DNA from: Candidatus Bathyarchaeota archaeon
GTDB taxonomy: Archaea > Thermoproteota > Bathyarchaeia > TCS64 > PIYN01
Reading direction: 5' to 3'
Assembly (NCBI GenBank): GCA_003601775.1
Contig: PIYN01000009.1
Coordinates: 1-59,607, forward strand
DNA: 59,607 nucleotides
Shown: one piece after another, positions 16,473 through 59,607 of the stretch
Layout of the letters: each line of letters starts with the position of its first letter
How positions within the stretch are numbered: position 1 is the stretch's first letter
Translations under genes and position numbers: made by a program
The notes under the pieces: model-generated
Told to the model about the DNA's origin: nothing
Seen by the model: only the letters and a program-made list of their open reading frames with translations
Database searches by the model: none

Positions 16473-17462
16473 TCAGGGGGAGGGGATGCCGGGGACCTTG
16501 GGGAAGGGGACGGCCTCCCAGATCTTGGGGACGCCGCAGAGGTACCTCGTGAGCCTCTCGATGCCTATCCCGAAGCCGGCTGAGGGGACGATCCCCTCCT
16601 TGAGCATCTCGAGGTACCAGCCGTAGGCCCTGGGGTCCTCTCCGGTCCTCCTCATCCTCTCGAGGACCCTCTCATACTCGTACTCCCGCTCCCCGCCGGA
16701 GATGGCCTCGCCGAAGCCCTCCGGGTAGAGGAGGTCGAAGTCCCTCAGGATTCCCTTCCTCTCAGGGTCCTCCCGGTCATAGAAGCCCCTCGCCGTCTTG
16801 GGGTAGTCGTAGACGAAGAAGGGATCATCGAACATCGCGGAGAGGTGCTCCTCCGCATCCCAGGGGATCTCGACGCCATAGTCGATGTCGAAGCCCTCAC
16901 CCCTGAGCAGGTCCACGGCCTCCCGGTAGCTGAGCCTCTTGAAGGGGACCGCTGGAACCCTCAGGTCCCTGCCCAGGAACTCCAGCTCCTCCCCGCACCG
17001 ATCCCTGACCCTCGCGCAGACGTACCTCAGCATCCGCTCGGCGAGATCCATCACCTCATGGTAGGTCGCCTCCGCGACCTCCAGGTCCAGCTGCCTGAAC
17101 TCGGCGAGGTGGCGTCCCGTCTTCAGGGCCTCGGGCGGCTCTAAGCGGACGTTGGGTGAGAGGGCGAAGACCTTCCTGAGGGAGCAGACGGCCATCTGCT
17201 TATAGAGGATCATGCTGCTCATGACCTTGAAGGGGTGTCCATAGTAGTCGATGGTGACCTGCTTCGCCCCCCTGATCCCAGGGTCGGTGACGGGCCCTAT
17301 GATCGGAGCGAGTATCTCGACGAAGCCCTCCCCCCTCAGGAAGTCGCGGAGGGCGGAGAGAGCCTCGTCCTGGACCCTCAGTATCGCCCTCATCCTGGGG
17401 CTCCTGATCTCGAGGTACCTCCTATAGAGCTCCTCCTCAAGCCCACGTTCATCGATCCTCAT
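16473..17462 (-). CDS. Archaeal asparagine synthetase A (AsnRS-like catalytic core)
   Basis: A 329-residue class II aminoacyl-tRNA synthetase core without the N-terminal anticodon-binding domain, matching the archaeal AS-AR type that makes asparagine from aspartate, ammonia and ATP. It has motif 1 around FVEILAPIIGPVTD, the aspartyl-group segment VMSSMILYKQMAV, motif 2 near LRKVFALSPNVRLE and HLAEFRQLDLE, and motif 3 as GFGIGIERL. GTG at 17465 precedes the ATG used here. An AsnC/Lrp-type regulator is divergently transcribed next door, echoing the asnC-asnA pairing of enterobacteria. Confidence 0.88.
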   Translation of the reverse strand: MRIDERGLEEELYRRYLEIRSPRMRAILRVQDEALSALRDFLRGEGFVEILAPIIGPVTDPGIRGAKQVTIDYYGHPFKVMSSMILYKQMAVCSLRKVFALSPNVRLEPPEALKTGRHLAEFRQLDLEVAEATYHEVMDLAERMLRYVCARVRDRCGEELEFLGRDLRVPAVPFKRLSYREAVDLLRGEGFDIDYGVEIPWDAEEHLSAMFDDPFFVYDYPKTARGFYDREDPERKGILRDFDLLYPEGFGEAISGGEREYEYERVLERMRRTGEDPRAYGWYLEMLKEGIVPSAGFGIGIERLTRYLCGVPKIWEAVPFPKVPGIPSP

Positions 17463-44478: not shown

Positions 44479-44566
44479 GCCGGGGTTTCCTAGCCAGGTA
44501 AGGAGCAGGCCTGCTAAGTCTGTGGCCCTCTGGGCCTCGTGGGTTCAAATCCCACCCCCGGCGCCA
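44479..44566 (+). tRNA. tRNA-Ser(GCT)
   Basis: An 88-nt type II tRNA with encoded CCA. The acceptor GCCGGGG pairs with CCCCGGC (44556-44562); D stem TCCT/AGGA; anticodon stem CAGGC/GTCTG around loop CTGCTAA gives anticodon GCT; long variable arm GGCCC-TCT-GGGCC; T arm GTGGG-TTCAAAT-CCCAC. All arms close, with one G-T in the anticodon stem. Confidence 0.95.
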
Positions 44567-57661: not shown

Positions 57662-58975
57662 ATGGCCCGAGTAGCGATCTCAAGGGTGGCCACACCCGTC
57701 GACGAGGAGCGGATATACGACGCCGTGAAGAAGGCCATCGATGACCTCGGAGGGATGGAGGAGTTCGTCGAGCCAGGGGAGAAGGTGCTGCTGAAGCCCA
57801 ACTTCGTGAGCCCACGGCCACCCCCCGTCACGACGGATGTAAGGGTGGTCAGGGCGGTCGCCCTCCAAGTGAAGGAGGCCGGGGCAAAGCCCATAATCGG
57901 CGAGAGCTCCTCCGCCATGACCCACTGGTGGCGTGAGGGGATGGAGACGAGGGACGTCATGGAGATGCTGGGGGCAGTGGATATGGCCAGGGAGATCGGC
58001 GTCGAGATCGAGCCCTTCGAGGAGGACGGGGTCTTCAAGAGCGTGAGGGTGAAGATCCCCGGCGCCGTGGTCCTGAAGGAGGCTGAGATCGCCGAGCTGC
58101 CGCTGAGGGTCGATAAGATCGTCCCGATCCCCGTCCTCAAGACGAGCATGGAGGGCGGCGGCATCACCTGCTGCATAAAGGACCTCCACGCCCTCCCCAA
58201 CACCTTCACCGACAGGCTGAGGTGGCACCGCTCAGAGCTCTGGCAGAAGCTCGTCGACATCCTGAGGCTGGTGAGGGAGAAGATCTCCCTCTGCGTCGTG
58301 GACGCCATCCGCGCCATGGAGGGAGACGGGCCGATCCATGGCAACCCCGTGGACCTCAACCTGATCATCGCCGGCGACGACCCCGTCTCGACGGATGCCA
58401 TAGCTGCGAAGGTGGTGGGCTTCGAGTACCCCCACTACGAGGTGGGGCCCATAGCCCTCGCTCACTCCCAGGGTCTTGGGGTGGGCGACCCCAGCATGAT
58501 CGAGGTCTTGGGGGAGGATGTCGAGAAGGTCAAGCGGAGGTTCCTGATGGCCTCCTGCGAGATAGTGACACCCCACTTCGAGAACGTCCTGGTCTGCGAG
58601 GGCGCTGCCTGCAGGACCTGCAAGGCCTGGATCAAGTTCACCCTCTACATGCTCAAGGACACTGGATTCTTCGAGCAACTGAAGGAGCTGGGGAAGACCC
58701 TCCACTTCTACGTGGGCCTCGACCCACCCTTCCCCTCCGACCTGGACGAGGTCAGGGAGATGACCGAGGAGGCCCTCCCCATCATCTTCGGGGACTGCGC
58801 CATCTCCGCCGTGAAGAACTCCTACTGGGTCCTCTCCCAGGGAGAACTGAGGGGGAAGGTCCTCCTCATGCCCGGATGCCCACCCTTCGCCTGCGCCCAG
58901 CAGGCCTCCCAGATCATAGAGGCCCTGGGCCTCGAGATAACGGAGAGGGAAGCCTTCAAGTACGTCCCCACCTAA
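57662..58975 (+). CDS. DUF362 protein with Cys-rich C-terminal extension
   Basis: A 437-residue protein. Residues 1-290 are DUF362: KVLLKPNFVSP near 47, VPIPVLKTSM, ITCCIKDLH, VVDAIRAMEGDGPIHGNP and DPVSTDAIAAKVVGF. Residues about 300-437 form an extension absent from the copy at 9.5 kb and containing CEGAACRTCKAW, FGDCAISAV and MPGCPPFACAQQ, eight or so Cys that could bind Fe-S clusters. It follows the alcohol dehydrogenase by 48 bp. A redox role is inferred only. Confidence 0.78.
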   Translation: MARVAISRVATPVDEERIYDAVKKAIDDLGGMEEFVEPGEKVLLKPNFVSPRPPPVTTDVRVVRAVALQVKEAGAKPIIGESSSAMTHWWREGMETRDVMEMLGAVDMAREIGVEIEPFEEDGVFKSVRVKIPGAVVLKEAEIAELPLRVDKIVPIPVLKTSMEGGGITCCIKDLHALPNTFTDRLRWHRSELWQKLVDILRLVREKISLCVVDAIRAMEGDGPIHGNPVDLNLIIAGDDPVSTDAIAAKVVGFEYPHYEVGPIALAHSQGLGVGDPSMIEVLGEDVEKVKRRFLMASCEIVTPHFENVLVCEGAACRTCKAWIKFTLYMLKDTGFFEQLKELGKTLHFYVGLDPPFPSDLDEVREMTEEALPIIFGDCAISAVKNSYWVLSQGELRGKVLLMPGCPPFACAQQASQIIEALGLEITEREAFKYVPT

Positions 58976-59110
58976 ACCTTAAAGGACCTACGACCCAAAG
59001 TGGCCAGATTGTTACGGTTCAATTAGTTTTTTATATACTATAGTAGCTACAACCATTCCCTCCCTGAGGGTTATGAACTGTAAAGGGATCGGAGGATGCC
59101 GTTGCATCTC
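58976..59110. other. Intergenic region with T-run and TATA-like sequence
   Basis: Contains AGTTTTTTATATACTATAG near 59026-59044, which could terminate the DUF362 transcript or act as a plus-strand TATA box. The only downstream plus-strand frame is a 43-codon one from ATG 59073, which I do not accept as a gene. Confidence 0.4.
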
Positions 59111-59414
59111 TCACCTCTTGGAGAAAGGCGGGGTCGAAGTCGCAGAACAGTATATGAAGTCGGCTGCCTTTATGGCCTCAAGCAGACGATCCTCGAAAGC
59201 TTGACAGCCCGCCCGAGAGACCATAGCCTCCCTCGGCGTATTGACGACCAAGACATGGGGCAACGCACCGATCGCCCTACAGTGGGTCACAAGGGCGCTA
59301 TACCTCGCCGGCTCCCGTATCTGGACTCACACAGATCAGCACCTCATGACCAGCCCCGACCCCCTTATACTCCAACGTCCACCTCGCAAGTTTGCTGAAC
59401 AGGGTCTCCTTCAA
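59111..59414 (-). pseudogene. Small frameshifted reading frame, about 100 codons
   Basis: TTG at 59414 follows GCAGGGAGG and an AT-rich TATA region, and reads LKETLFSKLARWTLEYKG, then HEVLICVSPDTGAGEV before a stop near 59300. Shifting by one base there continues as YSALVTHCRAIGALPHVLV, VNTPREAMVSRAGCQ and AIKAADFIYC to a TGA at 59111. Codon choice (AGG for Arg, G/C-ending) matches neighbours. It looks like a real small alpha/beta, perhaps flavodoxin-like, protein broken by one base: a pseudogene, a sequencing error or programmed frameshifting. Function not recognised. Confidence 0.5.
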
Positions 59415-59514
59415 CCTCCCTGCCCACCAATTAATTTTTATCATAAATAAAAATTTATACTCTCGACGGCACATAACAACTCAAACTTCTAAAATCTCAC
59501 CCCAACCTAATTGA

Positions 59515-59607
59515 TGGCGCCGGGGGTGGGATTCGAACCCACGCGACCCTTACGGGTCACAAGCTCTCCAGGCCTGAGCCCTCCGGATAGGGGGTTTGCT
59601 CCATACC
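59515..59607 (-). tRNA. tRNA-Ser(GGA), 5' acceptor strand not contiguous (interrupted or partial)
   Basis: Read on the minus strand: encoded CCA at 59515-59517, acceptor 3' strand CCCCGGC, T arm GTGGG-TTCGAAT-CCCAC, long variable arm, anticodon stem CAGGC/GCTTG with loop CTGGAGA (anticodon GGA), and a D-arm-like CCCTATCCGGAGGGC. The expected GCCGGGG acceptor strand should precede the D stem, but the sequence there is GGTATGGAGCAAA up to the window edge. The 5' end therefore lies beyond the window, after an intron, or is encoded elsewhere. Confidence 0.75.

What the first reader, a model, noticed from the sequence alone, without database searches (positions are those of the whole stretch)
59515..59607. 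tRNA-Ser(GGA) without an adjacent 5' acceptor strand
All of the tRNA from the D arm to CCA is present, but the seven-base GCCGGGG acceptor strand expected just before the D arm is absent in the remaining sequence, which reads GGTATGGAGCAAAC. The other serine tRNA in the window has a continuous acceptor of the same sequence. Options are an intron near position 9-11 or in the D arm, a trans-spliced split tRNA, or a tRNA fragment left by an integrating element.
Basis: partly seen in the sequence, partly recalled or inferred. Interest (0 to 1): 0.5.

Follow-up and report, generated by a model that had tools for sequence, protein, structure and literature searches.

The report
Serine tRNA cut by contig end
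This is an ordinary archaeal serine tRNA gene with one small intron; its first bases are missing because the assembled DNA piece stops inside the gene.

Summary
The 5' acceptor strand is absent because the sequence ends. The window is all of contig C10, and base 59607 is its last base. The gene is on the minus strand and runs off that end. Relatives in the same order (Bathyarchaeota) carry the whole gene: GCCGGGG TC TCCTAG(T/C)GGTATGGAG, then the anticodon arm. Removing it at 29/30 gives perfect Watson-Crick stems in 16 of 16 distinct intron-bearing copies (80 of 80 pairs). No other boundary does so. A central 4-bp helix with two 3-nt bulges fits in 15 of 15 copies compared. Endonuclease and RtcB ligase genes are present. 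No separate 5' half or intact second copy was found. A 2014 review lists 29/30 as a known non-canonical archaeal intron position. Verdict: contig-end truncation of a known kind of intron-containing tRNA gene; not split and not an att fragment.

The parts
59596..59607 (-). Remnant of the 5' exon of tRNA-Ser(GGA): GGTATGGAGCAA, positions 18-29 (end of D loop, 3' D-stem strand, G26, first three bases of the anticodon stem)
   Evidence: Relatives G001, G028, G007, G003 and G015 have GGTATGGAGCAA with GCCGGGGTCTCCTAG(T/C) directly before it
59574..59595 (-). 22-nt intron ACCCCCTATCCGGAGGGCTCAG at position 29/30
   Evidence: Boundary by stem pairing in 16 distinct copies, bulge-helix-bulge, coordinates, and intron-free relatives
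59515..59573 (-). 3' exon of tRNA-Ser(GGA): position 30 to CCA, anticodon GGA at 59567-59569, long variable arm, T arm, acceptor CCCCGGC, discriminator G, encoded CCA
   Evidence: Sequence and comparison with relatives
59607..59607 (.). End of contig C10, which cuts the gene at position 18
   Evidence: Contig length 59607

Best explanation
The feature is a normal, probably functional tRNA-Ser(GGA) gene of an archaeon of the Bathyarchaeota, with one 22-nt intron at position 29/30. The gene is incomplete only because the contig stops at tRNA position 18. In the cell (inferred), the precursor folds so that GAGC (positions 24-27) pairs with GCUC of the intron, leaving the 3-nt bulges AA^A and AG^G. 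The EndA splicing endonuclease cuts both bulges and RtcB joins the exons. This restores the anticodon stem CAAGC/GCUUG. The gene, the intron and the conserved fold are shown by sequence comparison; cutting and joining are inferred from established archaeal tRNA splicing.
For: The window is the whole contig and ends at 59607. In relatives of the same order, the letters GGTATGGAGCAA are preceded directly by GCCGGGGTCTCCTAG(T/C). Of 32 genomes of the order searched with an exact pattern, 16 matched: 11 with the intron and 5 without, the latter with stem CCAGC/GCTGG. Two more (G004, G006) carry it with small D-arm changes. Splicing at 29/30 gives 80 of 80 Watson-Crick stem pairs over 16 distinct intron-bearing copies; the other five boundaries give 56-64 of 80. 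The central helix H is 4 of 4 in 15 of 15 copies, with 3-nt bulges at both sites. The minimum-energy fold of the window stretch is exactly this motif. Two tRNA_int_endo matches and one RtcB match are in the genome. Position 29/30 is listed as a known non-canonical site in PMC4090602 (passage seen).
Against: The missing 16 nt were not seen in this genome, so their continuity is inferred from relatives. The motif's fold is no more stable than shuffles (z +1.48, 187 of 200 shuffles at least as stable), so the structure rests on comparison, not on energy. The window's inner helix has a C-A mismatch, giving 2 consecutive pairs; copies L108 and L119 have only 1. Thirteen of the 32 genomes of the order gave no pattern match, and no Ser(GGA) copy of theirs was examined here.
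Confidence: 0.97

Rival explanations
1. Trans-spliced split tRNA: the 5' half is encoded elsewhere and joined in trans.
For: The acceptor strand is not in the contig, and split tRNAs are known in some archaea (PMC3218864, search listing and start of abstract only).
Against: The exon is contiguous back to position 18, and relatives have positions 1-17 adjacent. GCCGGGGTNTCCTA with up to 1 mismatch occurs once in the genome, in the intact tRNA-Ser(GCT) at 44479. TAGNGGTATGGAG with up to 1 mismatch gave 7 sites, all with 1 mismatch, against 23 for the reversed control pattern. GCCGGGGNNGCC gave 17 sites against 12 for its control; these were not each examined as 5' halves, since relatives have T rather than G at position 10.
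Confidence: 0.01
2. tRNA fragment left as an attachment site by an integrated element.
For: Integrases often use tRNA genes (established knowledge). The genome has two Phage_integrase matches.
Against: The fragment is the only Ser(GGA) copy found. The integrases are on contigs C2 and C8, not C10. No direct or inverted repeat of 16 bases or more was found in 58000-59607. Of eight nearby reading frames tested, seven match metabolic families or DUF362 and one matches nothing. The break falls exactly on the contig end.
Confidence: 0.01
3. A pseudogene that truly lost its 5' end, with the contig end there by coincidence.
For: None beyond the missing bases.
Against: The visible 5' exon bases match relatives, the spliced anticodon stem is perfect, and it is the only GGA serine tRNA found in a genome estimated 92.7% complete.
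Confidence: 0.01

Closest known systems
[quoted passage not shown]
   Same: Short intron, position 29/30 (listed in PMC4090602), 4-bp central helix with two 3-nt bulges, endonuclease and ligase genes present
   Different: Nothing of substance; this copy is cut by a contig end
Split tRNA genes (as in Nanoarchaeum equitans and Staphylothermus; PMC4090602 passage)
   Same: A tRNA gene lacking its 5' part in one stretch of DNA
   Different: No separate 5' half was found; relatives have one continuous gene; the gap is the contig end

Membership tests
Intron-containing archaeal tRNA gene (BHB) | Removing the insert restores a normal tRNA arm | tested here: met
   Stem CAAGC/GCTTG perfect; 80 of 80 pairs over 16 copies at 29/30; intron-free relatives have the same arm
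Intron-containing archaeal tRNA gene (BHB) | 4-bp helix flanked by two 3-nt bulges at the splice sites | tested here: met
   15 of 15 copies with H 4/4; the window's fold shows it, though its energy is not unusual
Intron-containing archaeal tRNA gene (BHB) | Splicing endonuclease and RtcB in the genome | tested here: met
   PF01974 two matches, PF01139 one match
Intron-containing archaeal tRNA gene (BHB) | Intron shown to be removed in RNA | not testable with these tools
   No RNA data held
Split tRNA | 5' and 3' halves at separate loci | tested here: not met
   No 5' half found; contiguous in relatives; the assembly is incomplete
Integration (att) fragment of a tRNA | Intact gene copy elsewhere with an integrase near the fragment | tested here: not met
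   No second copy; integrases on other contigs

The most novel reading that the evidence does not exclude
In this species alone the 5' half (positions 1-17) is encoded apart, in the unassembled part of the genome, and joined in trans near position 17/18, although relatives have one continuous gene.
Probability: 0.01. Interest if true: 0.5.

Novelty: new member of a known kind. Interest (0 to 1): 0.05.

Why it matters
It matters little beyond annotation: the gene should be recorded as a partial tRNA-Ser(GGA) with a 22-nt intron at 29/30, and not as a split or disrupted tRNA. It is a reminder that a non-canonical intron near a contig end can look like a broken tRNA, and that ARAGORN and the Rfam tRNA model miss it.

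Tried and rejected
Extending the contig to the right: impossible, since it ends at 59607. Reading CCCCCTATCCGGAGGG as a D arm: rejected, because relatives show the real D arm upstream and this stretch varies in length (12-24 nt intron) and sequence. Splice boundaries 26/27 to 31/32 other than 29/30: rejected, 56-64 of 80 Watson-Crick pairs against 80 of 80. Folding energy as evidence: not significant. An apparent intact tRNA-Ser(GGA) with a 43-nt intron that ARAGORN reports at L064:1672-1800 was read by eye. It has a GCGGGGG/CCCCCGC acceptor, loop CTTAAGA and stem CGAGA/TCTCG, and is best read as tRNA-Leu(TAA) with two introns, so it is not a second Ser(GGA). Rfam does not call it.

Full report
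What is there. The last 93 bases of the window, read on the minus strand, hold a serine tRNA with anticodon GGA, ending in an encoded CCA. ARAGORN and Rfam report only two tRNAs in the window, at 44479 (Ser, GCT) and 48533 (Val, TAC). The window is the whole of contig C10 of a 47-contig, 1.53-Mb assembly estimated 92.7% complete. Asking for sequence beyond 59607 returned only up to 59607, the contig length.

Why the acceptor is missing. A search of 41 genomes (the own genome and 40 relatives) found relatives of this end. The same holds in G015 and G007. The window thus starts at G18 of the tRNA. Only positions 1-17 (16 nt in those relatives) lie past the contig end. The window's other serine tRNA has the same kind of D arm.

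The intron. Between GGAGCAA and GC-CTGGAGA lie 22 bases, at 59574-59595. An exact pattern found the gene in 16 of 32 genomes of the order, 11 with an insert and 5 without. G004 and G006, which differ by a D-arm base, also have an insert. In the named collection 22 stretches matched, 11 with an insert and 11 without. Fourteen of the 22 titles say Candidatus Bathyarchaeota, 3 Marsarchaeota, 1 Methanomethyliaceae and 4 only 'archaeon'. Among 16 distinct copies with an insert (12-24 nt), splicing at 29/30 gives a fully Watson-Crick anticodon stem in every copy, 80 of 80 pairs. Boundaries 26/27, 27/28, 28/29, 30/31 and 31/32 give 56, 58, 64, 64 and 62 of 80. The stem covaries: CAAGC/GCTTG, CTAGC/GCTAG, CAGGC/GCCTG, and CCAGC/GCTGG or CGGGC/GCCCG in intron-free copies.

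The splice signal. In 15 of 15 copies compared, exon GAGC pairs with GCTC (GCTT in two) near the intron's 3' end, leaving 3-nt bulges cut as NN^N on both sides. Beyond it an inner helix has 3-5 consecutive pairs in 12 of 15. It changes on both sides between copies (for example CCTC/GAGG against CACC/GGTG). The window has 2 consecutive pairs, or 4 with one C-A mismatch; L108 and L119 have 1. The window's own minimum-energy fold is this motif, but its energy is not better than shuffles (z +1.48), so the case rests on comparison. The genome has two tRNA splicing endonuclease matches and one RtcB match. Two subunit genes agree with the (alpha-beta)2 type that PMC7714728 describes as found mainly in the TACK group (passages), though I did not test their assembly.

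Rivals. No other place in the genome matches this tRNA in full; the other seven matches are partial, at 78-96% identity. None of the 41 Rfam tRNA matches lies at this gene. Of those 41, the 30 given loci were read with ARAGORN and none of the 30 is itself a GGA serine tRNA; the other 11 were not read in that call, one of them being the window's Ser(GCT). GCCGGGGTNTCCTA with up to 1 mismatch occurs once, in tRNA-Ser(GCT). The D-arm pattern gave 7 one-mismatch sites against 23 for the reversed control. Integrase matches are on C2 and C8, and no repeat was found in the last 1.6 kb. Of eight reading frames tested near the end, seven match metabolic families or DUF362 and one matches nothing.

Known or new. 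The passages of PMC4090602 shown list 29/30 among known non-canonical archaeal tRNA intron positions. A search for 'Bathyarchaeota' with 'tRNA intron' gave two papers, neither on this gene by title or start of abstract (passages of one seen). The individual gene may be undescribed, but the kind is well known.

Noticed in passing
L064:1672-1800 (G000 contig C2, about 16628-16756): A tRNA that ARAGORN names Ser(GGA) with a 43-nt intron reads better as tRNA-Leu(TAA) with two introns, one at about 30/31 with bulge-helix-bulge GGCG/CGCC and one in the anticodon loop (read by eye). Rfam's tRNA model misses it.
   Followed up: partly
L138 and L139 near 1600 (G001 and G028): Two relatives of one genus are about 95% alike upstream of and through tRNA-Ser(GGA), but the alignment stops within a few bases of the tRNA 3' end, as if something had been inserted or rearranged there.
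   Followed up: partly
L136 (G000:C2:3341-3802) and G000:C2:3952-4034: A phage-type integrase gene lies about 150 bases from a tRNA gene, a possible integration site.
   Followed up: no
L119:177-222: In a Methanomethyliaceae genome the same tRNA seems to have an intron of only 12 nt at 29/30.
   Followed up: no
L069 (G000:C19:10-84): Another contig of this assembly begins 9 bases from a tRNA gene, Ala(TGC).
   Followed up: no
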